Positions 4,789 to 38,528 of a stretch of 43,029 nucleotides of DNA are shown here, one piece after another. A model generated the notes under the pieces. That model saw only the letters and a list, made by a program, of their open reading frames with translations, had not been told where the DNA came from and did no database searches. The stretch is from Halobacteriales archaeon QS_1_69_70 (GTDB lineage: Archaea > Halobacteriota > Halobacteria > Halobacteriales > Haloarculaceae): positions 1 to 43,029 of the forward strand of contig PXRI01000020.1 of NCBI GenBank assembly GCA_003021005.1, in the 5' to 3' direction. How positions within the stretch are numbered: the stretch's first letter is position 1; every line of letters begins with the position of its first letter. Position numbers and translations under genes: made by a program.

Positions 4789-5607
4789 ATGGTCACGAGC
4801 GACGACCTCGGCAACGACGACCTCGCGGTGACGGTGGCCGACGACGACCTCGTCGTGCGTGCCACCATCGACCGCGAGGCGGACCGCAACGCCCTCAACC
4901 AGGAGGTCATCGGCGGCCTGCTCGACGTGTTCGCGTACGCCGACGGCGGCGACGCCCGCGTCGTCGTCATCCGCGGCGCCGGCGGCACGTTCTGTGCGGG
5001 CGGGGACGTCAAGTCGATGGCAAGCGCCGTCGGCCAGGGTTCGCAGGCCTACCGCGAGGGCTTCGCCGGAATGAAGGACCTCGTGTCGGCCGCCGTCGAC
5101 ACCGCCGCGCTCACCGTCGCCGCCGTCGAGGGCTACTGTCTCGCCGGCGGCATGGGGCTGGCGGGCGCCTGCGACGTCGTCATCGCCAGCGACGAGGCGA
5201 CGTTCGGCACCCCGGAGGTCGACATCGGCATCTTCCCCGCCCAGGCCCTGGTCCCGATCATGCGCACGGTCAACGAGAAGCAGGCGTTCAAGTACCTGTT
5301 CACCGGCGAGCACTTCGACGCCGAGACCGCCCACGACATCGGCTTTACCACCGACGTCGTCCCGGCCGACGAGTTCGACGCCGAACTCGACGACCTCCTC
5401 GATGATCTCGTCACGCCGTCGTCGTTCATGATCGAGATCGGTAAGGAGTCGTTCTACAACCAGCGCGAGATGGACTTCGAGGAGGGGCTGGACTACATGC
5501 GTGAGATGGTGACCCTGCTCGCGATGAGCGACGACGCCGAGGCCGGCTTCAACGCCTTCCTCACCGACTCGACGCCCGACTGGAAGGGCCGCCCGGACGA
5601 CGAATGA
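4789..5607 (+). CDS. enoyl-CoA hydratase/isomerase family protein (crotonase)
   Basis: The 272-residue protein has the crotonase fold. Oxyanion-hole segments are GTFCAGGDVKSM and GYCLAGGMGLAGACDVVIAS, and a catalytic-type glutamate lies in FGTPEVDIGIFP. Members hydrate enoyl-CoAs or isomerise, cleave or decarboxylate related CoA esters; the precise reaction cannot be read from the sequence. The downstream BKACE gene (70 bases away, same strand) suggests a shared catabolic role in beta-keto acid/CoA metabolism. An inverted repeat sits in the promoter region. The start at 4789 is the first ATG giving the family N-terminus. Confidence 0.88.
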   Translation: MVTSDDLGNDDLAVTVADDDLVVRATIDREADRNALNQEVIGGLLDVFAYADGGDARVVVIRGAGGTFCAGGDVKSMASAVGQGSQAYREGFAGMKDLVSAAVDTAALTVAAVEGYCLAGGMGLAGACDVVIASDEATFGTPEVDIGIFPAQALVPIMRTVNEKQAFKYLFTGEHFDAETAHDIGFTTDVVPADEFDAELDDLLDDLVTPSSFMIEIGKESFYNQREMDFEEGLDYMREMVTLLAMSDDAEAGFNAFLTDSTPDWKGRPDDE

Positions 5608-6568: not shown

Positions 6569-6573
6569 ACCCA

Positions 6574-6688
6574 CTTTTTACTCCTTCGGGTGTCCTCGCT
6601 CGCTCCGCTCGCTTCGGGCACCGCTCTCTGCTCACGGCGACTGAGTCGCCGTTCGCACGGTAGGCGGGACCTCCGGAGGAGTAAAAAG
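6574..6688. repeat. 115-base element with 16-base inverted ends
   Basis: CTTTTTACTCCTTCGG (6574-6589) and CCGGAGGAGTAAAAAG (6673-6688) are reverse complements with one mismatch. Between them lie the CGCTCGCT/CGCTTCG-type short repeats common in haloarchaeal intergenic DNA. The element follows the BKACE stop at once and could act as a terminator hairpin or be a small MITE-like element. It contains no gene. A T-run in the left arm would suit termination. Confidence 0.5.
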
Positions 6689-7121
6689 CCATGCGGTCGC
6701 CGCTCACCATCAGGCGGCACTCCCGCTGGTCGTTCCGCCCGCCCGCCGTTCGACGATTCCGAGACGCTCGCTTCGCTCGCGTCTCGCCACGCCTCGCGGC
6801 CGGTGAACCACTCGCGCGCCTGCGGGTGCTCGCGGATGCTCACACTCGAAGTAGGATTGTAGTCTGTATCGGTAGTGGTTGTAACACCTTGACAGAGTTC
6901 GTATCTGGATGTTATTATATGCTGCGAGCTGAATATAGAGGGTGGATGTAGCACGGCGATTACATTCCTCCCGTCCCAGATCTCCTGTATCTGATGTGCT
7001 TTAGAGTTGGCTTACTGGTTGAATTTCTCCTAAGGTATCATTCGAGGTTGACTCCGTCTCAATAAAAAGATTTCACTTCAGTCAACCTAGCACTTATTCC
7101 GGTACGGATTATTTCACAAGT
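6689..7121. other. non-coding transition from GC-rich core to AT-rich island
   Basis: Nothing convincing is coded here. The first 150 bases are GC-rich with short palindromic haloarchaeal repeats. From about 6840 the composition turns AT-rich, marking the left edge of the island that runs to about 16400. No integrase gene, tRNA or obvious direct repeat is seen at this edge. Confidence 0.5.
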
Positions 7122-7544
7122 ATGCTTCGACGCAGTGTTATAAAGCTCAGCTTGGCAGGCTCATCAATTTTAGCGGGTTGCACCCAGGGTAATGAATCAG
7201 ATCCGAATAATGAAAATCCATGTGATGATATAGGTCGTGGACCAGACATATTTATTAGCAATAGAACAGAAAAAGGCATTACAATTTCCATAATAATCAA
7301 CCGAGGGTCAAGAAGTGACAATACAGTTGTATTCAAAGAAGATTATGATATAGGTGGAAAAGATACCCACGAAGTTTACAGAATATTCAAGGAATTTCTG
7401 GAGCGTTAGGAGGAGTCAACTGATACATATATCGCTACTGCAACGTGGGATGACAAAGAAGTGTCTACTATGTTATCAATATTTAATTCATGCAGAATGA
7501 ACACCAATCGAAGACCAGTGGATGGAGCCGCTATCTCTCGATAA
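7122..7544 (+). pseudogene. small Tat lipoprotein gene interrupted by an in-frame TAG
   Basis: The reading frame starts MLRRSVIKLSLAGSSILAGC, a twin-arginine-like signal with an LAGC lipobox (lipidated C20). After 95 codons a TAG occurs at 7407-7409. The same frame then stays open for 44 more codons to TAA at 7542-7544. That extension contains TYIATATWDDKEVSTML, which reads like the final strands of the small Ig-like domain seen in haloarchaeal lipoproteins. The gene therefore looks inactivated by one nonsense change, though the 95-residue product may still be made. Composition is AT-rich, unlike the core. Function is unknown. Confidence 0.55.
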
Positions 7545-7964
7545 TGGTATATCCGGTTTATGGCTGTTCAGCTAGAAATTGTGGCAATCATAATCTTTAA
7601 ATGTTGGTACGGTTTTTGCCCTTTCCCATACGGATTATCCTCGTTAAGCCTTAAACACTGGCCTATAACTGTCTTCTTTAAATACATTTTATGTTATATA
7701 CGCGTCTATTCCATGCAAAGTTATATTATGAGGTCGCATTTAATCGAATATCCGCAGTATTAAGTTACCTTCTGGTGGGTGGTGAAATTATCTAACGATA
7801 CTCAGTTCGCTGAGAAGAAAACGCGACCAACAGGGCGATATCGAACTAATCTTACTAAAGCAAACCAGACAGTCATACATTGTGTCGTTTTAATAGCGGA
7901 AACAAAATTGGCTGGCGAGGGCTACAGCTTCACGGTGGGCACTCATCCTCCCGATAGGCCAGCC
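7545..7964. other. AT-rich stretch without a supported gene
   Basis: Short open frames occur, but none has a family resemblance, ribosome-binding site or coding-like composition. The sequence separates the broken lipoprotein gene from the transposase remnant. It may include the unrecognised end of the insertion sequence. Confidence 0.4.
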
Positions 7965-9038
7965 TTAGCCTGCCCACACGTCGCTCCACCACAGGAACCG
8001 CTGTTTCGGTTCCGCAAACAAGGCTTCAGCCGCCGCCTCATCCAGCTCTTCGAAGAGGTTCCGTGCGCGGTCGATCGATCGTTCCCGTGACTCCAGGCCG
8101 TGTTTGACCGTCCAAAGCGTCATCTGCTGGGCCAAAAACGTAAGCAGGCGTTCCGGCACCTGGAAACGGTGCTCGACCCGAGAGGGCTGGGTGTGCGGAA
8201 ATAGTTCTCGAGCTCGTTGATGGTCCCCGGGAGCCACGGTTCCCGGTGGTAGGCGGTGAACTTGTCGTAGGGCGCCTCGATCGACCGGATCTGCTGCTGG
8301 AGCGGCTCAGGAACCTCCTCGATCTCATCATGCACGGCCTCGAACCGGTCTCTCATCCGGGTATAGTGACCGAGCCCGGCCGACCTGGTGTGATCGGTGA
8401 GCAGGGCACATACCTCCGAACAGATCCGCCGGGCCGCGATCTGCTCCACGGCCGTGAGGTCGTCATCGTCGAGGCTTTCCCAGAGGGCCTCCCGGAGGTT
8501 GCTGGCCTTGTGGAAGCCACACCGGTAATGGAGCGCGCCGAACTCGTCTTCGACGAGCGTGGCGCTGCCGGCGCGGCCGTCGGTCTTCATCGTCAGCAGG
8601 GCCTTGTCCCGGAGGACCGGCTCGATTACGTTTTTGATCGCCACGTTGGTGCTGGTGTCGGTGAGGCCTTCAAGGAACGGTGCTTTCATCAACGCATCGA
8701 ACACGGTGACGCGATACCACCGCTTGCCCGCGATGGTGATCCAGTCCTCGTCGAGCAGGTACACGCCGGAATAGGTAAAGGAGGTCGTTGCCGACGACCG
8801 GCTCCGCTCCGGCCTGGTTGACATCAGGGGACTCTGTGTGGGTCCAGTCGTCGAGGGCGGTGCGGCTGGGCGTCGCACCGTGGCGGGCAGTGCAAAACGT
8901 CCGGTGTTGGTCGAGGGTGGCCGGGTAGATGAGATCAGCCGCTTGCACGTCTCGCCGGAGCTCGTCGGTGTACCGATAGCCGTCCTCAATGAAGGGGAGA
9001 CTCGGGCTGAAGTAGGCGCAGCACTCGTACGCTGGCAT
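7965..9038 (-). pseudogene. DDE-type transposase, degraded by frameshifts
   Basis: Three consecutive minus-strand frames join into one transposase. The first holds ECCAYFSPSLPFIEDGYRYTDELRR and TLDQHRTFC. The second holds VYLLDEDWITIAGKRWYRV, KTDGRAG and TINELENYF, plausible DDE blocks. The third holds QVPERLLTFLAQQMTLWTVKHG to the stop at 7965. Frame changes near 8770-8820 and 8190 break the protein. A further frame upstream (to about 9260) adds a cysteine-bearing stretch RCFLPDPVCPEFSSRRITHNG, probably the N-terminal zinc ribbon. I cannot assign the IS family. Confidence 0.75.
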
Positions 9039-9262
9039 TCGTACTGCTGAATCCGAATCGGACCTGATTGGGCCAGCCCGGCGGGCCGGCGACCCTGTGG
9101 GTTGCGCCTTTCGGTGCCATTGTGCGTGATGCGGCGCGAGCTGAACTCGGGACAGACCGGGTCGGGGAGGAAACAGCGGTTAGCTTCATAAGCGACGGCG
9201 TCTTCGGGAAGAGATGGTGCAGGATCGGAACAGGGTGTTGTGTTGTGACAGCCGCCATGTTC
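7965..9262 (-). mobile_element. insertion sequence remnant
   Basis: These are the limits of recognisable transposase sequence, including the N-terminal zinc-ribbon-like part in a third frame. I looked for terminal inverted repeats in 7880-7964 and 9262-9480 and found none convincing, so the element ends are unknown. With at least two frameshifts and no intact start, the element cannot move on its own. It lies just upstream of the acyl-carrier-protein operon and may mark how that operon arrived. Confidence 0.65.
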
Positions 9263-9545
9263 CCGTTACTGCACCACCGATAGTTTATCCGGCCGACATG
9301 TCAGCCATACGTCTGACGAGCGACTGACGGGTAGGCACCCTGTATTACCCTGACGGCGGGCCGATTTGAGATGATCGTCACACTAGGGTCCACCGACAAA
9401 AACAATTCAATACACCAAGGTATTGGCCCAGGTTGCGCTGATTACTGAGACAACCTGGCGTCGAGTGTTGTTCAAGTAGCAGATGCGTCGGTAATTTTAT
9501 CAGCTACTGAGTTGATAGTGCCGAATATCCACGCTGGGAGTAACC

Positions 9546-9818
9546 ATGGCAAAAGTCCACGACATAGATAAAACCGAAATCGACAATCGGATTGAAAAAG
9601 AGATATCAGATAGGTTGCAAGTTTCGAGGTCGGACTTCGACGATAATACTCCATTTGAGGAACCGCCCTTGAATGCGGAATCATTGGATATCATTGAACT
9701 AGCAGAAACTATCGATATGGAATTAGGAATTTTCATTCCTGATGACCACCTTGAACAGATGGAAACCGTCGGTGATGCAAAGTCTTACATCTACAATGAG
9801 CTCGACATAGCTGAATAG
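9546..9818 (+). CDS. acpP: acyl carrier protein (ACP)
   Basis: The 90-residue acidic protein contains the carrier-protein signature LNAESLDIIELAETIDMELGI followed by FIPDD, with S46 as the phosphopantetheine attachment serine (ESLD in place of the usual DSLD). The C-terminal part, METVGDAKSYI, is the last ACP helix. ACP carries growing acyl chains as thioesters; dedicated ACPs are uncommon in archaea. A purine-rich GGGAG lies eight to twelve bases before the ATG and an AT-rich TATA-like stretch lies at about 9494-9501. It is first in a tight operon with KAS II, AcpS, FabD and FabG. Its TAG stop is three bases before, and in frame with, the KAS II ATG. Confidence 0.93.
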   Translation: MAKVHDIDKTEIDNRIEKEISDRLQVSRSDFDDNTPFEEPPLNAESLDIIELAETIDMELGIFIPDDHLEQMETVGDAKSYIYNELDIAE

Positions 9819-9821
9819 TCA

Positions 9822-11027
9822 ATGCAAGAAGAGGTTGTGGTAACCGGGATAGGTGCTATTACTCCAACTGGTAGAACAGTCGAGAAGACGTGGGATACAA
9901 TTCTGGATGGGGAGGTAGGTATTGACCGTATAAACCAATTTGATCCGGATGATGTAAATCTCCGGTCGAAGATAGACGCTGAGATTACCTTCGATCCAAA
10001 CGACCACGAAAGTGTAGACTCTGCCCGTATGGGGAGATACGCACAAATCGCAGTGATTTCCGCCAAAGAGGCGATTCAAGACGCGGGGTTATCGCTTTCA
10101 CAAATGGAACCCACCAAGATGGGGACTAGTATCGCAAGCGGGATGGGAGGGTTGCCCGAGGCAGACGATATCAACGGTCGTCCTCCAACGAGGACAATGA
10201 TGAAACTACCCCCGAACCTAGCTGCTGGGCATATCAGCATGGAGTTCGGTGCAAAGGGGCCTAACAGGGCCCCGTCAACTGCATGTGCTGCAGGGACGCA
10301 CGCCATCATCGGTGGAGCAGAAGATATTCTGCAAAATCATGCCGATATCATTATTACAGGAGGTACCGAAACGCCGCTAACACCGCTCGGTGTTCAATCC
10401 TTTGACGTGATGAGGGCCCTCAGTACCCGTAATGAAGCTCCTCATAAAGCAAGCAGGCCCTTCGATTCAAATCGCGATGGTTTCGTAATCGGGGAAGGAG
10501 CTGGGGCTATGATTCTCGAATCTCGTTCTCACGCAGAAAAGCGGGATGCAGAAGTTTACGCACGGATCGCTGGCTTCGGTCGAACTGCGGACGCGTATCA
10601 CCCAACCCGTCCAGCTGAAGGAGGCGAGGGACTGCAACGCTGTATGTCACGCGCTATTGCGAGCGCTGAAATGGATCCAGGTGATATTGATCACGTCAAC
10701 GCACACGCGACTAGTACCCCGCGTGGCGATGAGAACGAAGCACAAGCGATCAAAACGATATTCGACGAGATGCCCCCGGTTACCAGCAATAAAGGCCATC
10801 TGGGGCACAGCCTCGGAGCTACCGGCGCCATCGAGGCCGTACTAAGCATCAAATCCCTCCGCGAAGGTAAGCTTCTCCCCACAGCGAATTATAATAACCC
10901 CGATCCGGATTGTGAACTACCGGTAGTAGCCAAACCCCGTAAAGTGGGTATTCAAACAGTCCTCTCGAACTCCGCCGGGTTCGGAGGAACAAACGGATCA
11001 ATTTTATTCATAAAGGAGGAAGGATGA
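9822..11027 (+). CDS. fabF: 3-oxoacyl-ACP synthase II (KAS II)
   Basis: The 401-residue condensing enzyme joins malonyl-ACP to an acyl chain with loss of CO2. The full Cys-His-His triad is visible: C155 in STACAAGTH, H295 in VNAHATSTPRGDENEA, and H329 in NKGHLGHSLGATGA, with the supporting K324. Spacing matches bacterial FabF (140 residues between Cys and the first His). The C-terminal GFGGTNGS motif is present. It differs from the KS domain of type I polyketide synthases in being free-standing. A four-base overlap links it to AcpS. Composition is clearly AT-richer than the flanking core, suggesting acquisition by transfer. Confidence 0.95.
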   Translation: MQEEVVVTGIGAITPTGRTVEKTWDTILDGEVGIDRINQFDPDDVNLRSKIDAEITFDPNDHESVDSARMGRYAQIAVISAKEAIQDAGLSLSQMEPTKMGTSIASGMGGLPEADDINGRPPTRTMMKLPPNLAAGHISMEFGAKGPNRAPSTACAAGTHAIIGGAEDILQNHADIIITGGTETPLTPLGVQSFDVMRALSTRNEAPHKASRPFDSNRDGFVIGEGAGAMILESRSHAEKRDAEVYARIAGFGRTADAYHPTRPAEGGEGLQRCMSRAIASAEMDPGDIDHVNAHATSTPRGDENEAQAIKTIFDEMPPVTSNKGHLGHSLGATGAIEAVLSIKSLREGKLLPTANYNNPDPDCELPVVAKPRKVGIQTVLSNSAGFGGTNGSILFIKEEG

Positions 11028-11482
11028 CGGCTTCAGCGTTCGATTCACGATTCTTGGATTCCCTCCCTCCGGGCGTCCATCTTGGTACAGACGTCGTATC
11101 CATCTCTCGGATACAGAAACTTATCGAAGAGTTCGGCGACTCGTTTCTATCGAGGGCCTTCACCCGAGCCGAACGAGAGTACAGTAGCTCCCAGGGACAC
11201 CCAGCAGAGCATTACGCAAGTCGATGGGCAGCGAAAGAAGCGTTCTTCAAGACCTGTTCGGAACCAACTCCGGGCGTCCCGTTCGACAGTATCGAAGTAC
11301 GGAAAGACGAAGGTATTCCTTCCCTGTGTCTCAGTGGCCCTGCAGCCACCGCTGCTAGGAGGATTATTGGACATACTGATGGGGAACCAGCGACGGCAAT
11401 AAGCCTCTCACACGACAGGAAATCCGACCACGCCATCGCAGTCGTGGCGATATTCGAGAGCTCGACGAACTCCTCACCATGA
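11024..11482 (+). CDS. acpS: holo-ACP synthase (phosphopantetheinyl transferase)
   Basis: AcpS transfers 4'-phosphopantetheine from CoA to the ACP serine. The 152-residue protein shows the magnesium/CoA-binding motifs of the family: GTDVVSISRI (D23), FTRAEREY, RWAAKEAFFK (E72) and AISLSHD. It is about 25 residues longer than bacterial AcpS because of the N-terminus and C-terminus. Overlaps of four bases on both sides (ATGA) place it in the middle of the operon. A dedicated AcpS next to the ACP argues that the ACP is truly activated in this organism. Confidence 0.93.
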   Translation: MTASAFDSRFLDSLPPGVHLGTDVVSISRIQKLIEEFGDSFLSRAFTRAEREYSSSQGHPAEHYASRWAAKEAFFKTCSEPTPGVPFDSIEVRKDEGIPSLCLSGPAATAARRIIGHTDGEPATAISLSHDRKSDHAIAVVAIFESSTNSSP

Positions 11483-12396
11483 AAACCGCGTTCGTATTTC
11501 CAGGACAGGGTAGCCAGGAGCCTGGTATGGGTAAACAGTTCTATCGCCAGTGGGAAGCGACCGAAGCGTGCCTCAAACGATTGAGTGAGGCCGTCGAAAT
11601 CGATCTCGCAGCTCTGTGTTTCGAAGGCGATGCTGAACGGTTACAGTCCACTGAAAACACACAGCCAGCTGTCTTCAGCGTTGGACTCAGCGTCTACGAA
11701 GGCTTACAGCGGCGATTCGATCTCGATCCAGATTACGTTACTGGTCATAGTTTGGGCCACTTCACCGCCTTGACCTCTGCGGATGGTTTACCACCAGAGA
11801 AAGCCGTTCAACTCGTTCGGAGGCGAGGGGAGATCATGGCAGACGTGACTGGTACCGCCGATACCGGAAAGATGGTCGCTGTACTACTAGTAGATCCGGC
11901 TGACGTCGTTGCTGCCTGTGAGGAATTCGAAGACGTTGGGGTAGCCGGGTTCAACGGACCCCGACAAATGGTTATCAGTGGGGGAAAGGAATCGGTCGAC
12001 CGTGTTCAAGCCCGAATCGAGAACAGCAACCGTGCGAGATTCGTCGAATTGGCCGTGGGGGCTCCGTTCCACTCTCCACTGATGCTGGACGCAAAAGATG
12101 CCTTTCGTGAGTACCTAGAAGAGGATTACTTCGACGACCCGTCGATCCCTGTCGTCTCGGACGTTTCCGGGGACCTGTACACGGATGCCATAGTCCCCGA
12201 GTCCGAACTCGTAGAGCAAATCACAGCCCCGGTAAATTGGGTCGGCGTCGTCGAAACGCTACGTGACGTTGGCGTAGAACGGTATATAGAACTTCCACCG
12301 ACCGGTGAAATTGGTGAGATGATCCACCGGATTCATTCGGGGGCCGAGGTGATATCGATCGACAGTCCAAAAGTCGCAGCGGAGGAGTTCGGATGA
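11479..12396 (+). CDS. fabD: malonyl-CoA:ACP S-malonyltransferase
   Basis: This 305-residue acyltransferase loads malonyl units onto ACP. Visible motifs are FPGQGSQ at the N-terminus, the nucleophile S91 in GHSLGHFTAL, R116 in RRRGEIM (binds the malonyl carboxylate) and H198 in GAPFHSPLM. The arginine and GAPFHS pattern fit a malonyl rather than a simple acetyl-type specificity. The length matches bacterial FabD. It overlaps both neighbours by four bases. Malonyl-CoA would have to come from an acetyl/propionyl-CoA carboxylase encoded elsewhere. Confidence 0.94.
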   Translation: MKTAFVFPGQGSQEPGMGKQFYRQWEATEACLKRLSEAVEIDLAALCFEGDAERLQSTENTQPAVFSVGLSVYEGLQRRFDLDPDYVTGHSLGHFTALTSADGLPPEKAVQLVRRRGEIMADVTGTADTGKMVAVLLVDPADVVAACEEFEDVGVAGFNGPRQMVISGGKESVDRVQARIENSNRARFVELAVGAPFHSPLMLDAKDAFREYLEEDYFDDPSIPVVSDVSGDLYTDAIVPESELVEQITAPVNWVGVVETLRDVGVERYIELPPTGEIGEMIHRIHSGAEVISIDSPKVAAEEFG

Positions 12397-13166
12397 GCTC
12401 GAGATTTCGGGGCGAAGACCTCGCAGTAGTCACAGGAGGTACAAAAGGCATCGGCCGAGCTGTGGTAGAGCAGTTGGTGTCCGAAGGCGTTCCCACAGTC
12501 GCGATCTATAAGTCGGACGAGGATCGAGCGAACGAATGCCGATCGGCACTCGGGGACGTGGAACCAGAGACGAGAGTCTATCAGGTCGATGTTTCCGATT
12601 ATAGCGAGGCCGTCGCTGGTTTCAAAACCATCGTCGAGGAGGTGGGTCGACCGAGCATCCTCGTGAACAACGCCGGAATCATGCGTAACCACTTCCTGCG
12701 ACGTCTCGATCCCGAACAGTGGGATGAAGTAATCCAGACGAACCTCTCGGGAACCTTCCATTGCACCCGAGCTGCTTCACGACACATGTTACGAAAGTCA
12801 CGCGGGAGTATCGTCAACGTGAGCAGCGTAGCGGCCCAACGAGGATACGTTGCTCAGGCGAACTACGCGGCGAGTAAATCGGGAGTTATAGGGTTTACAC
12901 GCGCTGCTGCCAGGGAGTTAGGCAACGATTCGCTTCGTGTCAACGCGATAAGTCCCGGGTATACGGATACACCACTGTATCGAAACTCGTTGTCCTCGAG
13001 AACGAAGATTGCGGGAGACGAGCAGGAAGATTTCCGGGACGACATTCCCCTGGATCGTATCGCCGATCCAGCAGAGATCGCTAACGCAATCATCTTTCTC
13101 GCCAGTGACGAAGCTTCGTATGTGAATGGGACGGTGCTTCGCGTCGACGGTGGTCTACTTGCCTGA
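12393..13166 (+). CDS. fabG: 3-oxoacyl-ACP reductase
   Basis: The 257-residue short-chain dehydrogenase has the cofactor motif TGGTKGIG (14-21), NNAG (92-95), and the catalytic set N117, S145, Y158 and K162 (YAASKSG). The C-terminal VDGG is typical of FabG. It would reduce 3-ketoacyl-ACP to 3-hydroxyacyl-ACP with NADPH or NADH. SDR substrate choice cannot be proven from sequence, but its position, overlapping FabD by four bases in an ACP operon, makes the FabG role the simplest reading. Confidence 0.9.
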   Translation: MSSRFRGEDLAVVTGGTKGIGRAVVEQLVSEGVPTVAIYKSDEDRANECRSALGDVEPETRVYQVDVSDYSEAVAGFKTIVEEVGRPSILVNNAGIMRNHFLRRLDPEQWDEVIQTNLSGTFHCTRAASRHMLRKSRGSIVNVSSVAAQRGYVAQANYAASKSGVIGFTRAAARELGNDSLRVNAISPGYTDTPLYRNSLSSRTKIAGDEQEDFRDDIPLDRIADPAEIANAIIFLASDEASYVNGTVLRVDGGLLA

Positions 13167-13238
13167 ATATTGCAACAGAAACGGTTCGGTTCAGGAGGCG
13201 CTCTCCGACGGACGAGACGAAACCACTCCGATAAACAA

Positions 13239-14210
13239 ATGAAAGCGATTATAGTTAAAGGGTATGGCGGGGCGGAAAATCTAGAACTAATCGAGAAACC
13301 GAAACCCGAGCCCTCGGCTGACGAAGTTCGGCTCGCCGTTTACAACGCGGGAGTTAACTTCGCAGACATCGAAAAACGGAAGGGAGCGTATCCAAACGCT
13401 CCAGAGCCTCCGTACACGCCCGGTATCGAGGTAGCGGGAGTGATCGACGCTGTTGGTCGAGATGTGGACCGGGAGCCGGGTGATACGGTTGCGGCAATTG
13501 TAGAAGAAGGGGGCTACGCGGAGTACGTGACCCTCGATCCGGACAATATCCTTGAAATCCCGGAGGGGGTCGACATAGCTGATGCGAGTGCGTTTCCCGT
13601 TAACTTCCTGACTGCTTACAACGCGTTTCACGAATGGGGCCGGGTTGAAGAAGATGAGAGTGTACTCGTCCATGCGGCAGCTGGAGGTGTGGGGTCTGCT
13701 GCTGTCCAATTGGCAGCCCTTATTGATGTGGAGGTATACGCTACTGCAAGCACAGAACGGAAACTAAACTTCGTAGCGGAGTTAGGTGCGGATACTTGTC
13801 TAAATTACGAAACAACTGATGTTGGCCCTACAATCTTGAAAAGTACGTCTGATGAGGGTGTCGACCTTATTCTAGATGGCGTAGGGGGTGATGCATTTTA
13901 TACGAGTCTCGAGCTTCTCGCCGATAGCGGACGAATCGTAACGTATGGGATTGCAAGTGGTAACGTCCCCGTCGTCTCGCCCCCTCGTCTGATATTCGAA
14001 AATCAGTCTCTGATAGGATTTCACCTGGGGCACGCTCTGGACCACGAGAGGAGTAGATTAATGAAATCACTTCCACCTCTCCACGAGGGGTTTGATGAGG
14101 CCGATTTACAGATTTATATCGGAAAACGATTTGATTTAGAAGATGCTGGAAAGGCCCATGATTTCATCGAAAACAGGAAAAGCATTGGTAAAGTGATATT
14201 AGATGTTTGA
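13239..14210 (+). CDS. MDR-superfamily NAD(P)H oxidoreductase, candidate enoyl reductase
   Basis: The 323-residue protein is a zinc-free medium-chain dehydrogenase/reductase of the quinone oxidoreductase group. The cofactor motif is AAAGGVGSAAVQLA (146-159), and the structural and catalytic zinc cysteines of alcohol dehydrogenases are absent. Relatives include quinone reductases, enoyl reductase domains of type I FAS/PKS and mitochondrial MECR. After FabG, in an ACP operon lacking FabI/FabK, an enoyl-thioester reductase role is attractive, but quinone reduction cannot be excluded. It lies 72 bases after fabG, not overlapping, so it may have its own promoter. ATG 13239 matches the family start. 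Confidence 0.8.
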   Translation: MKAIIVKGYGGAENLELIEKPKPEPSADEVRLAVYNAGVNFADIEKRKGAYPNAPEPPYTPGIEVAGVIDAVGRDVDREPGDTVAAIVEEGGYAEYVTLDPDNILEIPEGVDIADASAFPVNFLTAYNAFHEWGRVEEDESVLVHAAAGGVGSAAVQLAALIDVEVYATASTERKLNFVAELGADTCLNYETTDVGPTILKSTSDEGVDLILDGVGGDAFYTSLELLADSGRIVTYGIASGNVPVVSPPRLIFENQSLIGFHLGHALDHERSRLMKSLPPLHEGFDEADLQIYIGKRFDLEDAGKAHDFIENRKSIGKVILDV

Positions 14211-14396
14211 TTTACTCATTGATGTACTAATTATTCAAGATTCCTCCATATGCATATTATCAGGGGGCGTATCATCAATAAGGTCATTCCTGGATCAATA
14301 TTCACCTCCTCGCACGCCTCTGAAGGTGGAGATGCATGTTTTGCCACGTGATGTTAAACAACGCACCTGATGGAGCGATTTAATTGTCAAGCGGGT

Positions 14397-15005
14397 CTAC
14401 TTAATTGCCCTCCTGGGGGTTGGCGACGTTGCGTTTGTTTCGAATCCATTCGATTCGATGTATTCTGGAATATCTAGGGGTAAGTACCGCATGTCGCCCT
14501 CGCCGGTATAGAATGCCGGATCACCACCGACCGGACCTTTGTAGAGATACCCCCCATCACAGCTATGAACCTGGTCGTTCTCACAGCGACCGTCAATATC
14601 AGGAGGGAGAACGCCTACTGCATTGTGGAGTATTTCGTGAACGACTAATGCGTCTCCCGAAACTGGATTGTTCTGGATTATTAGAAAACGGCCAGGGGTT
14701 TCGGCGACCCCGCTCTTGCTTCGTGTCGCCTCATCATCAAATGAAACAATCAACGCGAGCTGATAGATGCCGGCTCTGTCCTTAGTCGAGTTTTCGTAGC
14801 ATGTCTGCTTCAGTTCCGGAAAATTACTACCAGTATAGTTCACCGTTTTGTTTAGGCGAGGGCCCTCATCGATATGGAGCTTGATTCCGGTTGTGCCATC
14901 TGGATTTCTGACCGGCATATCTTCAAACCCTTGTTCCGTCGTATTTAATGCCCCACCTGGCAGTTTCGTGTTGCCTGTATACACGACCTGAATATAGATG
15001 TTCAT
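14397..15005 (-). CDS. zincin-like metalloprotease, possibly extracellular
   Basis: The 202-residue protein has HEILHNAVGVL, a HExxH zincin motif, around residue 125. Pairs of cysteines flank it (CYENSTKD; CENDQVHSC), which suggests an exported, disulphide-containing fold. However, the protein starts MNIYIQVVYTGN without a signal peptide, and upstream codons in the same frame soon reach a stop. The N-terminus may therefore be lost or mis-set, or the protein may be non-classically exported. Composition is AT-rich island type. I cannot place it in a named peptidase family; metzincin-like is a guess. A palindromic AT-rich site lies just upstream. Confidence 0.6.
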   Translation of the reverse strand: MNIYIQVVYTGNTKLPGGALNTTEQGFEDMPVRNPDGTTGIKLHIDEGPRLNKTVNYTGSNFPELKQTCYENSTKDRAGIYQLALIVSFDDEATRSKSGVAETPGRFLIIQNNPVSGDALVVHEILHNAVGVLPPDIDGRCENDQVHSCDGGYLYKGPVGGDPAFYTGEGDMRYLPLDIPEYIESNGFETNATSPTPRRAIK

Positions 15006-15037
15006 CTTGCAGGGGACACCTGATGTTCTGTAACTAC

Positions 15038-15052
15038 ACGTATACTATACGT
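15038..15052. promoter_or_regulatory. palindromic TATA-region site upstream of the zincin-like gene
   Basis: ACGTATA-C-TATACGT is a perfect 7+1+7 palindrome located 33-47 bases upstream of the ATG at 15005, next to or covering where an archaeal BRE/TATA box should be. It could be both promoter and operator. This rests on position and symmetry only. Confidence 0.45.
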
Positions 15053-15198
15053 CTCTATATGTTTTGCAACTATTGAAACATCACTCCCTTCAGAAAATTC
15101 ATTATAATTTCAGCCATTAGTTGGTCTTCGTCAATATCTAAGTCATTACTTATCTTGGAATTAACATTGGCAAAATATTGGTCAGGTCCCCTAAATAT

Positions 15199-15474
15199 TT
15201 ACCATTTAGTATAATATTCTCCTGGTTTAAGTATTATTGATTTTTTATACATAATAGAGCCATTATTATTTTCTATAGCTATTTCTATGTCGTGAGACAA
15301 TTGTCCGGTGTTATTTAAGAATAAATCTGGTGCACTACGGTTGTACCTAGGGTTGCTTTTTATATTTTGTTTACCCATTGCCCTACTGCTAATCATCGTA
15401 GTGACGACTGAGGCACCTGCAAATTTCAACGTTTGCCGCCTACTAACATTATTCCTGGACCCAGCCCTGAATGA
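15199..15474 (-). pseudogene. probable remnant of a small Tat-exported protein
   Basis: From an ATG at 15429 a 76-residue frame runs to the stop at 15199. The same frame is open further upstream and encodes NNVSRRQTLKFAGASVVTTM, a good twin-arginine signal, before reaching no usable ATG, GTG or TTG at the right place. The mature part (LFLNNTGQLSHDIEIAIE and IILKPGEYY) resembles a small beta-sandwich such as the lipoprotein at 7122. The start codon appears lost, so decay or an unrecognised start are both possible. No function can be given. Confidence 0.4.
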
Positions 15475-15730
15475 TTGAGAAAGGATAGTTATATAAAATT
15501 AACGGTGTATAACATTATCGGCAGCCTCTGTCTTTCATCTGGCTGACAGATGCAGTATAAATAAATTCTTGTTCTCCAATTGCTACATATTGAGCGTGTA
15601 TTCAGCGTTTTCGCCCGTAACCGCAACCGACGGTAATAATTAATATCTTAAGTGTGCTACTAAGCCACATGGAGTTCCATAATAAACTGGCAGAACCGAG
15701 CCTCAGAGTCGTAACGAACGGTGAGTCGAG
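15475..15730. other. AT-rich intergenic stretch
   Basis: This is AT-rich sequence upstream of both the Tat-protein remnant (minus) and the membrane-protein pseudogene (plus). No open frame of interest is seen. TATATAA-like runs near 15490 could be the promoter of the minus-strand remnant. Confidence 0.35.
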
Positions 15731-16275
15731 ATGAAACTCGCTGCCCAATTTGCGTTACTTTAGAGTGGGGGATTTTTGCTCACGGGGCTGCTGACGAGGG
15801 TCTGGAAGTATCGTCACATGATAGAAAGCGATGAAGGAACAGCCCCCAACTATGTGAACACCGCTCACCGTGCCACCTTGCTGTATTCGTTTGCGTCGAT
15901 CTTACTGTTTGAACTCGTCTTGCGTGGTCCGTCCCTTAGTCCGTTGAACTACTTGCGGTCGCGGCGCCCGTTGCGTTTTTCACCTCCGCTACTTCGTCCT
16001 AGATCCCCAATGGTCGGGCCAGATTAACCGACAACCAGTTCCGTAGTCCCCCCAAGCCGGGTGTCCTGCGTGCAGCGATGTGGGCCCTCATTGCTGCTGA
16101 AGTCGGTGGGATCGCCATCCTGTTAACCGGATTCGTTTCAACGAGTGTCACCAGTATCGCTCTCACAGCTTTCGGCCTCACCATACTGCTTGGTCTCGTT
16201 GGCCTGCTTGCAACACCGCTTGGCCAAGGATTGTTATCTACCATCCTCAGAGCCGCGGTGAGCGGCGACAGGTAA
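15731..16275 (+). pseudogene. conserved integral membrane protein, decayed
   Basis: The frame begins MKLAAQFALL at 15731 and meets TAG at 15761-15763. It continues with SGGFLLTGLLTRVWKYRHMI, then NYVNTAHRATLLYSFASILLFEL, to about 15950. The sequence then continues through different frames: AVAAPVAFFT, then YFVLDPQWSG, then NQFRSPPKPG and MWALIAAEVGGIAILLTGF, to the stop at 16275. One nonsense codon plus two or three frameshifts make this a clear pseudogene of a four-helix membrane protein. Its composition is intermediate between island and core, and it marks the island's right part. Confidence 0.65.
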
Positions 16276-16439
16276 TGTGTTCCGGGTCATACCACCAAGA
16301 ACGTACTGACCGACTCGCGCATTCTATTCAGCACACCGGTGAAAATGTCTACTGGATCTGATAGAACCGCATCTGGTCAACGTTCCTCGGAAGAACGCGT
16401 CGTTGAGCGTGTGTCGGAATCGAGATCCCGTCCGACCGA

Positions 16440-36960: not shown

Positions 36961-37152
36961 TCAGTTTGACGCATAATTACTGACGAAAACGTATGCAAGA
37001 TAGAGTAGAAATACCACTATGAGAATAGGAATCGCAGAAATTATGTTCCCTATAAGAAAATAACTGTACAAAATTATCATAATTACTAGTAGCGACAGGC
37101 CTATGCGAGCAACGCTCCCTTCTTCCAGTCTTTTACTGCTCGGAAATACCAT
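36961..37152 (-). CDS. small two-helix membrane protein
   Basis: The 63-residue protein has a short charged N-terminus (MVFPSSKRLEEGSVARIG) and two strongly hydrophobic segments (about 18-34 and 36-58), so it is a hairpin membrane protein. Its ATG overlaps the TAA of the upstream gene by one base (TAATG), so they are translated together. Composition is AT-rich. Function unknown; an accessory or protective partner of the upstream protein is one idea. Confidence 0.6.
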   Translation of the reverse strand: MVFPSSKRLEEGSVARIGLSLLVIMIILYSYFLIGNIISAIPILIVVFLLYLAYVFVSNYASN

Positions 37153-37775
37153 TATAGACCCTCCTCAAGGACTTCCCAATCGCCCATTTCGTCACCTCTA
37201 ACCCGTATTTTTGGCGTATCTTGTTGAAATTTCGAACCTTGGTAGTACGGGAAGTCGAACTCGAACTCTCCTTCTGAGTATACCTCGAATGACTCGTCGC
37301 CGATGTCCTCCCCCTCTCCAATTACACCCTCGTAATACCACCATGTTGTTATATTAGCATGGATATCCCCGTATGCGTAGTAATCCACCCCCCATATATC
37401 ATCGCCGTCATAATTCCAGGCGAAGTGGAGCGTAAAACTGTATATCGGGTAGAAACCCCAAGCTGCGTATTTTGTCCATGTGTAATCTACTCGCTTTCGC
37501 TCGTTGACATCCGGTTCAAATAAAGCACCTTCCGACTCGGTCGAGTATATGTCTTCTTGCCAGGTTTCAGTTGATTCTTCATAAGAAGTCTCGGTTTCAT
37601 CAGTTTCAACAACGGTCTGCACTGAGTTATCTTGGTCATCATTTAATTTGTCCAGTTCATCTTCTCGCTTTGACTGGCTCATGTCATTAATATCACTGAC
37701 GAACTGTTTGGTTTCATCCTCATCATCGGGATCGAAATTCGTGTTTGCAGCAGTAGCTTCTTGACTTACTACCAC
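37152..37775 (-). CDS. acidic, aromatic-rich protein, probably exported
   Basis: The 207-residue protein begins at GTG 37775 with VVSQEATAANTNFD, which looks like the last part of a signal peptide (cleavage after ATAA). Codons upstream stay open a little (KRWNSNKALSGSIV) but have no good start, so the N-terminus may be damaged or misread. A Glu/Asp/Ser/Thr-rich spacer (residues 15-75) follows. The C-terminal domain has many Trp and Tyr residues (WGFYPIYSFTLHFAWNYDGD; ITTWWYYEG) and no cysteine. No family is recognised. It is paired with a small two-helix protein. Confidence 0.55.
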   Translation of the reverse strand: MVVSQEATAANTNFDPDDEDETKQFVSDINDMSQSKREDELDKLNDDQDNSVQTVVETDETETSYEESTETWQEDIYSTESEGALFEPDVNERKRVDYTWTKYAAWGFYPIYSFTLHFAWNYDGDDIWGVDYYAYGDIHANITTWWYYEGVIGEGEDIGDESFEVYSEGEFEFDFPYYQGSKFQQDTPKIRVRGDEMGDWEVLEEGL

Positions 37776-38528
37776 TATAGAGCCGCTAAGTGCTTTGTTG
37801 CTGTTCCAACGCTTTTTATCACATCTCTTCTACTGTCTCGAACCATAACTTAGGTATAGGAATCTTTGTATTAAAGCTTTCGCTTGACAAGAATCCACAC
37901 AGATTCTTGCACGATTGGAGAATTAGGTACGGATAGTGGGTAAATATTACATTATCGACACTTTAAGACAACAATTATACTCACCCCAGTTTAGATACAA
38001 AAAGAAGTCCACCTTCTGAGAGACTATTCAGAAGGCGACTCCCGACCTGTCGACCAACCAGCTCAAAAGACACGTCACAATCGCTACGGCCATAATAAAG
38101 TCAGTAACTATAAGTGATAATAATAGCATAAAAATTCAAATACATCAACCACGTCGGTGGCGCCACCAGACGAGTCGGCCTCGGATACAATTCCGTGGGT
38201 GACTCAGTAAACATCATAGAGTGTGAGGCGGCTATATTTAACAACCGTTTCAAAATTGCCTGCACATCTATCTCCGCCAGGGAAGCATCGCCGTCCACCG
38301 TTACCACAAGCCCGGTGTCGTCAGGCCCTGCAGTGTCTCGCTTGGCATGGCGGACATCGTCCGTGACCTCAACCGTTGTTGCAGGCCGACCACGTCGAGA
38401 ACTCGAGACTTGGCGCCGGGCGCTGACCGAACTGATTATCCTCAAGTTGATTGACGACGTAGCTGTCGAAACCTCCCGAAACTTGGCGTGAAACAAAAAT
38501 GGCCGGGCAAAGCTGCAACTGGCCCCCG
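37776..38528. other. AT-rich region without a confident gene
   Basis: The first 400 bases are AT-rich and non-coding. From about 38180 to 38500 both strands have open frames. On the minus strand VEVTDDVRHAKRDTAGPDDT and VVTVDGDASLAEIDVQAILK look protein-like, and a different frame further upstream gives FDSYVVNQLEDNQFGQRPAP. The frames do not join, so a decayed gene is possible. A perfect inverted repeat lies at 38012-38035. Confidence 0.35.
38012..38035. repeat. perfect inverted repeat (8-base arms)
   Basis: CCTTCTGA and TCAGAAGG flank the eight-base loop GAGACTAT. The hairpin is in non-coding AT-rich DNA, 240 bases upstream of the exported-protein gene's start. It could be a terminator for something to the right or an operator; no T-run follows on either strand. 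Confidence 0.45.

What the first reader, a model, noticed from the sequence alone, without database searches (positions are those of the whole stretch)
9546..14210. Bacterial-type ACP-dependent acyl elongation operon in a haloarchaeon
ACP (S46), KAS II (C155/H295/H329), AcpS (D23/E72), FabD (S91/R116/H198), FabG (S145/Y158/K162) and an MDR enoyl-reductase-like gene are contiguous. ATGA overlaps link four of the genes. Archaea build isoprenoid lipids and usually lack a dedicated ACP/AcpS/malonyl-transferase set. All readable catalytic residues are intact, and composition is AT-richer than the core, so this looks like an acquired but maintained system. The product could be fatty acids, an acyl precursor (for example for lipoate or protein acylation) or a small polyketide.
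Basis: partly seen in the sequence, partly recalled or inferred. Interest (0 to 1): 0.85.

Follow-up and report, generated by a model that had tools for sequence, protein, structure and literature searches.

The report
Haloarchaeal acyl-carrier-protein fatty-chain operon
A salt-loving archaeon carries a compact, intact set of genes for building fatty chains on a carrier protein, a machine thought to be missing from most archaea, and relatives carry the same set next to different finishing enzymes, which gives testable clues to its products.

Summary
ACP, FabF-type ketosynthase (KAS), AcpS, FabD-type malonyl transferase (MAT), FabG and a quinone-reductase-like MDR gene (QOR) lie in a row. Three ATGA overlaps link four genes, and the named catalytic residues are present. 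The contig is haloarchaeal: a low-GC island separates two convergent genes that are neighbours in two genomes of the same genus.

It is not a fresh bacterial import. Full-length KAS is in 16 of 391 Halobacteria genomes, this one included. Nineteen haloarchaeal KAS form one clade apart from 45 bacterial FabF. The five-gene order recurs in 19 of 23 loci, components co-vary, and dN/dS is low in close pairs.

Best reading: a type II acyl-elongation module like mitochondrial FAS. FabA/FabZ is absent (0 of 30 genomes). A MaoC enzyme (30 of 30) probably dehydrates; it adjoins the operon in one relative. Relatives put the module beside an R2lox oxidase (10 of 23 loci), a glycine-cleavage/lipoate block (4) or a LanM lanthipeptide synthetase (2). 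The window's operon has none of these, so its product stays open. No biochemistry exists.

The parts
9546..9818 (+). acyl carrier protein (ACP), Ser46 phosphopantetheine site
   Evidence: NF002148 1e-13, PF00550 over cut-off; PDB ACP 2ehs 6e-9; Ser invariant in 22 of 22 loci
9822..11027 (+). beta-ketoacyl-ACP synthase II (FabF type), C155/H295/K324/H329
   Evidence: NF005589 over cut-off, 3e-129; FabF structure 6okg 2e-97; haloarchaeal clade
11024..11482 (+). holo-ACP synthase AcpS, D23/E72
   Evidence: TIGR00556 over cut-off 5e-21; PF01648; PDB AcpS and fungal FAS chains
11479..12396 (+). malonyl-CoA:ACP transacylase (FabD type), S91/R116/H198
   Evidence: TIGR00128 1e-76, just under cut-off; PF00698; PDB 2cuy 5e-46
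12393..13166 (+). 3-ketoacyl-ACP reductase (FabG type SDR), S145/Y158/K162
   Evidence: TIGR01830 3e-74, NF009466 over cut-off; PF13561
13239..14210 (+). MDR-family reductase of the quinone-reductase/enoyl-reductase group, proposed enoyl reductase
   Evidence: TIGR02824 4e-77, under cut-off; PDB hits include QOR, VAT-1 and polyketide-synthase ER domains; beside the operon in 17 of 23 loci
9493..9500 (+). possible TATA element AATTTTAT ahead of ACP (by eye, untested)
   Evidence: sequence inspection only
6569..16439 (.). low-GC island between convergent BKACE and panB genes that holds the operon
   Evidence: GC 0.43-0.61 in 1.5 kb windows against about 0.70 nearby; the same two genes are 1.3-1.4 kb apart in two genomes of the genus

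Best explanation
A haloarchaeal type II acyl-elongation module. AcpS loads ACP with phosphopantetheine; MAT moves malonyl from CoA to ACP; the single KAS condenses it with an acyl primer; FabG reduces the 3-keto group; a MaoC-type hot-dog dehydratase encoded elsewhere removes water; and the MDR reductase reduces the enoyl bond. The parts list is that of mitochondrial FAS (recalled: one KAS, SDR reductase, MaoC-type dehydratase, MDR-type enoyl reductase) rather than of E. coli FAS. This genome received the module on a low-GC island, most likely from another haloarchaeon. Shown: gene content, intact catalytic residues, a haloarchaeal KAS clade, recurrent order, co-variation of the components, purifying selection in relatives. 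Inferred: each enzyme step, the borrowed dehydratase, the enoyl-reductase role of QOR, the donor, and a medium-chain acyl-ACP product.
For: Families and residues. Order ACP-KAS-AcpS-MAT-FabG in 19 of 23 loci, QOR close by in 17 of 23. Pairwise distances of KAS, AcpS, MAT, FabG, QOR and ACP correlate at r 0.83-0.98, 0 of 2000 shuffles as high for each pair (22 loci at most, L030 left out). dN/dS 0.0-0.46, 25 of 32 values between 0.10 and 0.30, in five close pairs of relatives. Haloarchaeal KAS one clade, SH-aLRT 100, quick tree without bootstrap. FabA/FabZ 0 of 30 genomes (16 KAS+, 14 KAS-), MaoC 30 of 30 with 5 matches in this genome. One relative, G183/L043, has MaoC, FabG, MAT, ACP, KAS, AcpS, QOR, a second MAT and an acyl-CoA carboxylase carboxyltransferase within 11 kb; its MaoC is 54% identical to one in this genome.
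Against: MaoC is next to the operon in only one locus (L043); in L024 one lies about 7.5 kb from ACP, and six MaoC queries found none elsewhere in the 23 loci, the window included. MaoC is as common in non-carriers, so it is not specific. A crotonase-family ORF follows FabG in L045, and the window has a crotonase at 4789-5607 outside the island, so another dehydratase type is possible. QOR-type proteins have many roles; in G053 QOR sits with R2lox and no KAS is found. Six loci lack QOR in the stretch held, and L040 lacks MAT and FabG. In Natrinema sp. SYSU A 869 the KAS and R2lox frames are broken. The window KAS shares only 45-53% identity with relatives, so selection on it could not be measured. 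No expression or biochemical data. FabH initiation was not tested.
Confidence: 0.72

Rival explanations
1. Dedicated octanoyl-ACP supply for lipoate: the module makes C8-ACP that is passed to GcvH and other lipoyl domains for LipA.
For: A gcvT-gcvH-gcvPA-gcvPB-lpdA-glyA block with ilvA lies beside the operon in 4 of 23 loci: Haloterrigena turkmenica, Haloterrigena sp. KLK7, G243 and G369; lipA is seen in the block in 3 of the 4 (the KLK7 stretch ends in lpdA). The three that were treed lie in two parts of the KAS tree. G181, G197, G243 and G369 have 3 lipA matches each. This genome has lipA.
Against: lipA is in 371 of 391 Halobacteria while full-length KAS is in 16, so lipoate does not need the operon. 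Three or more lipA matches also occur in several non-carriers, such as G230, G265 and G366. LipB, which takes octanoyl from ACP, is in 0 of 391. No such gene found in the window island.
Confidence: 0.2
2. Supply of an oxygenated acyl chain: the acyl-ACP or freed acid is oxidised by the neighbouring R2lox-type Mn/Fe oxidase.
For: R2lox-like gene beside the operon in 10 of 23 loci, one broken. The proteins align to R2lox 4hr0/6qk1 and 3ee4; metal ligands and the Val-Tyr pair of the ether cross-link are conserved 9 of 9 (V72, Y162, E167, E202 per PMC6399176 passages, H205 per PMC10867098 passages, E69, E102, H105 recalled). R2lox binds a fatty acid (PMC6399176, passages). The operon-type subfamily (E below 1e-130) is in 9 of 391 genomes, 8 of them carriers. 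G301 pairs R2lox with a second, intact MAT, G053 with QOR.
Against: Not found in the window; this genome has two other R2lox-like matches, the listed one on contig C8 at 3e-90. R2lox-like genes are common in Halobacteria (133 of 391) and are linked to alkane use (PMC10867098, passages). Carriers G124 and G243 have no match.
Confidence: 0.15
3. Secondary-metabolite acyl supply, such as a fatty tail for a ribosomal peptide (lipolanthine-like), or a small polyketide.
For: LanM synthetase (DUF4135 + LANC_like) with a luciferase-like monooxygenase and an ABC transporter beside the operon in G124 and G104, LanMs 34% identical. GNAT genes in the stretches of L025, L035, L037, L039 and L042, and in L029 about 10 kb off. 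Patchy distribution, seven loci on plasmid records.
Against: No LanM, GNAT or ABC match of these kinds in the window. Only 2 of 23 loci have LanM. No chain-length factor: Cys is invariant in all 18 KAS aligned.
Confidence: 0.25
4. Decaying or silent foreign genes without function in this genome.
For: KAS in none of the 10 other genomes of the genus. Extreme codon and GC mismatch with the host. The island's other ORFs that were scanned have no Pfam match at 0.001. One relative carries broken copies.
Against: All six frames and all named catalytic residues intact here.
Confidence: 0.2

Closest known systems
Bacterial type II fatty acid synthase (FabD, FabF, FabG, FabZ, FabI/K/L, ACP, AcpS)
   Same: ACP, AcpS, malonyl transferase, FabF-type KAS and FabG as separate proteins in one operon
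   Different: No FabA/FabZ in 30 genomes, MDR instead of a FabI-type reductase in the operon, AcpS inside the operon, KAS clade separate from 45 bacterial FabF
Mitochondrial FAS (ACP, MCAT, OXSM, SDR reductase, HTD2, MECR); parts recalled
   Same: One KAS, MaoC-type dehydratase available, MDR reductase, small set, lipoate-gene linkage in some relatives
   Different: No LipB; common descent not tested; no MECR entry recognised by name among the 42 PDB sequences matching QOR at 1e-20, where VAT-1 and quinone reductases lead
ACP-independent archaeal fatty acid synthesis (PMC3533463, passages; a 2024 preprint known only as cited in PMC11948995 section 21)
   Same: Fatty acid synthesis in archaea
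   Different: That pathway is proposed to use CoA thioesters and thiolases; this one has ACP, AcpS and MAT
Lipolanthine/goadvionin-type lanthipeptide clusters (PMC10435860, passages; GNAT role recalled)
   Same: Acyl-building genes beside lanthipeptide synthetase genes, in two relatives
   Different: LanM-type (class II, recalled) in archaea rather than the class III-type synthetase of lipolanthines; not in the window
R2-like ligand-binding oxidase (R2lox)
   Same: Metal ligands and cross-link pair conserved in operon-linked proteins of relatives
   Different: Linked to an ACP operon; the Ala171 position is Ala or Gly (alignment)

Membership tests
Type II fatty acid synthase | discrete ACP with a modifiable Ser | tested here: met
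   ACP S46, invariant in 22 of 22; modification itself not testable
Type II fatty acid synthase | malonyl-CoA:ACP transacylase with Ser/Arg/His | tested here: met
   TIGR00128 score just under its cut-off
Type II fatty acid synthase | KAS with Cys-His-His | tested here: met
Type II fatty acid synthase | 3-ketoacyl reductase | tested here: met
Type II fatty acid synthase | 3-hydroxyacyl-ACP dehydratase | tested here: inconclusive
   FabA/FabZ 0 of 30; MaoC 30 of 30 but not in the window, adjacent in L043 only; crotonase in L045
Type II fatty acid synthase | enoyl-ACP reductase | tested here: inconclusive
   MDR protein beside the operon in 17 of 23 loci; substrate unknown
Type II fatty acid synthase | initiating KAS III or other primer source | not tested
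   no search made for FabH
Type II polyketide synthase | KAS paired with a Cys-less chain-length factor | tested here: not met
   Cys invariant in 18 of 18 KAS; one KAS match in this genome
Lipoate octanoyl-ACP pathway | LipB octanoyltransferase | tested here: not met
   0 of 391
Lipoate octanoyl-ACP pathway | LipA lipoyl synthase | tested here: met
   371 of 391, own genome included
Lipolanthine-type cluster (window) | lanthipeptide synthetase beside acyl genes | tested here: not met
   no LanM or GNAT match in the window; LanM only in L039 and L042
R2lox (operon-linked proteins of relatives) | six metal ligands and Val-Tyr cross-link pair | tested here: met
   9 of 9 aligned sequences; three ligand names recalled

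The most novel reading that the evidence does not exclude
Haloarchaea own an old, mobile ACP-based fatty-acyl module with a mitochondria-like parts list. It is plugged into different finishing systems in different lineages: R2lox oxidation, lipoylation of a linked glycine-cleavage system, and lipidation of LanM lanthipeptides. If so, archaea make ACP-bound fatty acyl chains de novo for specialised uses, and the operon would name a substrate source for one R2lox subfamily and predict lipidated archaeal lanthipeptides.
Probability: 0.35. Interest if true: 0.82.

Novelty: new variant of a known kind. Interest (0 to 1): 0.62.

Why it matters
Archaeal lipids are isoprenoid, and the reviewed view is that ACP machinery is missing from most archaea, with a few unrelated species having gained it from bacteria (PMC3533463, passages). 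A recurrent, selected, haloarchaeal ACP operon adds to that picture and changes it for this class. It makes a long-standing question, how haloarchaea obtain fatty acyl groups, directly testable in named carriers such as Haloferax mediterranei and Haloterrigena turkmenica. The gene neighbourhoods of relatives also give concrete substrate guesses for R2lox and a prediction of lipidated archaeal lanthipeptides.

Tried and rejected
Bacterial contamination: rejected. The flanking panB matches 11 of 12 other genomes of the genus at 63-85% identity, and KAS is in the haloarchaeal clade.

Recent import from bacteria: rejected for KAS. The 45 bacterial rows were picked from the 80 loci kept by one capped scan, so a missed sister group is possible. 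The other genes were not treed.

Acyl-ACP thioesterase (PF01643) as terminator: 15 of 30 genomes, no clear excess in carriers (9 of 16 carriers, 6 of 14 non-carriers; none in this genome), dropped.

Enoyl-reductase proof from a catalytic Tyr in QOR: dropped, because recalled relatives with other roles share it; no call made.

Other archaea: the KAS profile hits 3 of 246 genomes of the phylum, one of them outside the class (G487). That locus is organised differently and, read by eye, has nucleotide-sugar genes; taken as a separate acquisition.

Weak KAS matches in G092, G164 and G303 (E about 4e-4) were not counted as carriers.

The literature search is limited to the open PMC library and ten searches. 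In their listings, and in the passages of nine papers that I opened, I saw no description of this operon. Subscription papers, including Dibrova and co-workers 2014 on archaeal fatty acid metabolism (recalled), were not seen.

No structure prediction or fold search was run; sequence evidence was enough for the fold assignments.

They added a MaoC gene in L024, a 54% match of the L043 MaoC in this genome, and the missing AcpS Asp residues.
Full report
Observation. The window is a whole contig (C20) of a 2.45 Mb genome that is 82% complete and 0.08% contaminated. Profile and PDB matches confirm ACP, FabF-type KAS, AcpS, FabD-type MAT, FabG-type SDR and a quinone-reductase/enoyl-reductase-type MDR protein. 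The last gene more likely starts at ATG 13239 than at TTG 13170.

Setting. G+C falls from about 0.70 to 0.43-0.61 over 6.5-16.4 kb. GC3 is 0.45-0.59 in the operon and 0.90-0.95 in four flanking genes. In two genomes of the same genus (L167, L168) the flanking BKACE and panB genes are convergent neighbours 1.3-1.4 kb apart; here they are 9.87 kb apart. In the other 9 of 11 relatives' panB loci BKACE was not within the 1.5 kb or less held. KAS is in none of the 10 other genomes of the genus searched. So this genome gained an island, and the contig itself is haloarchaeal.

Distribution. With the window's KAS as query, 19 of 391 Halobacteria genomes match at E<=0.001. Sixteen, this one included, have full-length matches; three are weak partial matches that I did not count. 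In the plasmid collection, 652 records match; seven of the 20 listed are haloarchaeal, among them Haloferax mediterranei pHME505 and Haloterrigena turkmenica pHTUR01. A phylum-wide draw of 246 genomes gave 3 hits, one outside the class (G487, a different cluster). Two plasmid records have the same replicon lengths as contigs of G181 and G197.

Conserved unit. ACP-KAS-AcpS-MAT-FabG is collinear in 19 of 23 loci. One of the 19 is L030, where the KAS frame is broken and MAT and FabG are annotated as one gene. The exceptions are L026 and L028 (FabG on the divergent side), L040 (no MAT or FabG in the stretch held) and L043 (MAT and FabG divergent). QOR lies beside the operon in 17 of 23, on the ACP side in 15. 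Pairwise protein distances between components correlate at r 0.83-0.98, with 0 of 2000 shuffles as high for any pair (at most 22 loci, without L030). Closely related rows add to this, so it is support, not a probability. dN/dS in five close pairs of relatives is 0.0-0.46, with 25 of 32 values between 0.10 and 0.30. Against the window itself synonymous sites are saturated.

Origin. A quick maximum-likelihood tree of 64 KAS (19 haloarchaeal, 45 bacterial FabF from the 80 loci kept by one capped scan) puts all haloarchaeal rows on one side of a branch with SH-aLRT 100, no bootstrap. The window KAS sits inside on a long branch, with 45-53% identity to the others. One origin in haloarchaea followed by transfer among them is the simplest reading; the ultimate source is open.

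Missing steps. FabA/FabZ (PF07977) is in 0 of 30 genomes tested, 16 carriers and 14 non-carriers. MaoC (PF01575) is in 30 of 30, with five matches in this genome. One relative in the same family as the window's host (G183, L043) has MaoC, FabG, MAT, an SDR, ACP, KAS, AcpS, QOR, a second MAT and an acyl-CoA carboxylase carboxyltransferase together. That is the best single locus for the view that MaoC and QOR complete the cycle. It is one case of 23, and its proteins are among the most distant from the window's. Its MaoC has a 54% identical relative on contig C43 of this genome. With six MaoC queries, the only other MaoC in the 23 loci is in L024, about 7.5 kb from ACP; none is in the window. 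A crotonase-family ORF follows FabG in L045, and the window has a crotonase at 4789-5607 outside the island, so a crotonase is an alternative dehydratase.

Clues to products, all from relatives. (a) An R2lox-like gene lies beside the operon in 10 of 23 loci, one with broken frames; metal ligands and the cross-link pair are conserved in 9 of 9 aligned. The operon-type subfamily, by my cut at E below 1e-130, is in 9 of 391 genomes, 8 of them carriers (Fisher p 9e-12, not corrected for kinship and with the cut chosen after seeing the list). More broadly, R2lox-like matches are in 14 of 16 carriers and 119 of 375 others. (b) A glycine-cleavage and lpdA block lies beside the operon in 4 of 23 loci, with lipA seen in 3 of these. 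But LipB is in 0 of 391 and lipA in 371 of 391. (c) A LanM synthetase, a luciferase-like monooxygenase and an ABC transporter lie beside the operon in G124 and G104. GNAT genes occur in the stretches of L025, L029, L035, L037, L039 and L042. (d) An aldehyde dehydrogenase of the L025/L043 kind lies near it in L025, L035 and L043. The window gave no match to the R2lox, LanM, GNAT or aldehyde dehydrogenase queries; the glycine-cleavage and lipA queries were not run against the window, whose ORFs of 5-20 kb show no such gene by family scan of those tested.

Interpretation. The module most likely builds reduced acyl chains on ACP. The window carries the minimal form, so its product could be a free medium-chain acid, an acyl group for protein or lipoate, or nothing if the genes are silent. 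I hold the core mechanism at 0.72 and no single product above 0.25.

Comparison. A review states that only a few unrelated archaea have ACP, AcpS and MCAT, gained from bacteria, and argues for ACP-independent synthesis (PMC3533463, passages). A 2025 paper reports that low-level fatty acid synthesis was shown by 13C labelling in Haloferax volcanii and Sulfolobus, citing a preprint I did not see (PMC11948995, abstract, passages and section 21). Term searches in two papers on archaeal lanthipeptides found no 'acyl', 'fatty acid' or 'GNAT' (PMC12144867) and no 'acyl carrier', 'fatty acid' or 'acyltransferase' (PMC10105419); both name polyketide clusters as a class. None of the ten literature searches listed a paper that I recognised as describing this operon.

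Noticed in passing
window 8120-9038 (-): Two overlapping minus-strand ORFs that read by eye like pieces of a broken transposase; no Pfam match at 0.001.
   Followed up: partly
window 14397-15005 (-): 202-aa ORF with an HEILH zinc-metallopeptidase-like motif (by eye), no Pfam match, next to the operon's end.
   Followed up: partly
window 7122-7409 (+): 95-aa ORF with a lipobox-like LAGC near its start (by eye), no Pfam match; low-GC part of the island.
   Followed up: partly
window about 37000-38500: Second low-GC dip (0.45) in a contig otherwise near 0.70, possibly another island.
   Followed up: no
L039 6257-18500 and L042 10-8335: LanM-type lanthipeptide synthetase loci with luciferase-like monooxygenases beside the ACP operon; precursor peptides were not looked for.
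   Followed up: partly
L026 10060-10518 and L028 3578-4033: A second, divergent ACP-like ORF and a 73-aa KAS fragment on the opposite strand, perhaps a relic of a duplicated operon.
   Followed up: no
L030 9876-15396: Natrinema sp. SYSU A 869: KAS and R2lox frames broken, and MAT annotated as one gene with FabG.
   Followed up: no
L156 8371-10175 and L157 8532-10300: Operon-type R2lox with QOR alone (G053, no KAS match) and with a second intact MAT (G301), away from any KAS found.
   Followed up: partly
L178 7614-14242: Archaeal genome outside the class with its own ACP/AcpS/two-KAS/MAT/FabG cluster; hot-dog dehydratase-like and nucleotide-sugar ORFs by eye.
   Followed up: no
L024 5867-6760 (-) and 8137-9837: In Haloferax mediterranei a MaoC-domain protein (annotated as CBS domain protein) and a phaC gene lie upstream of the operon, so a polyhydroxyalkanoate neighbourhood adjoins it.
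   Followed up: no
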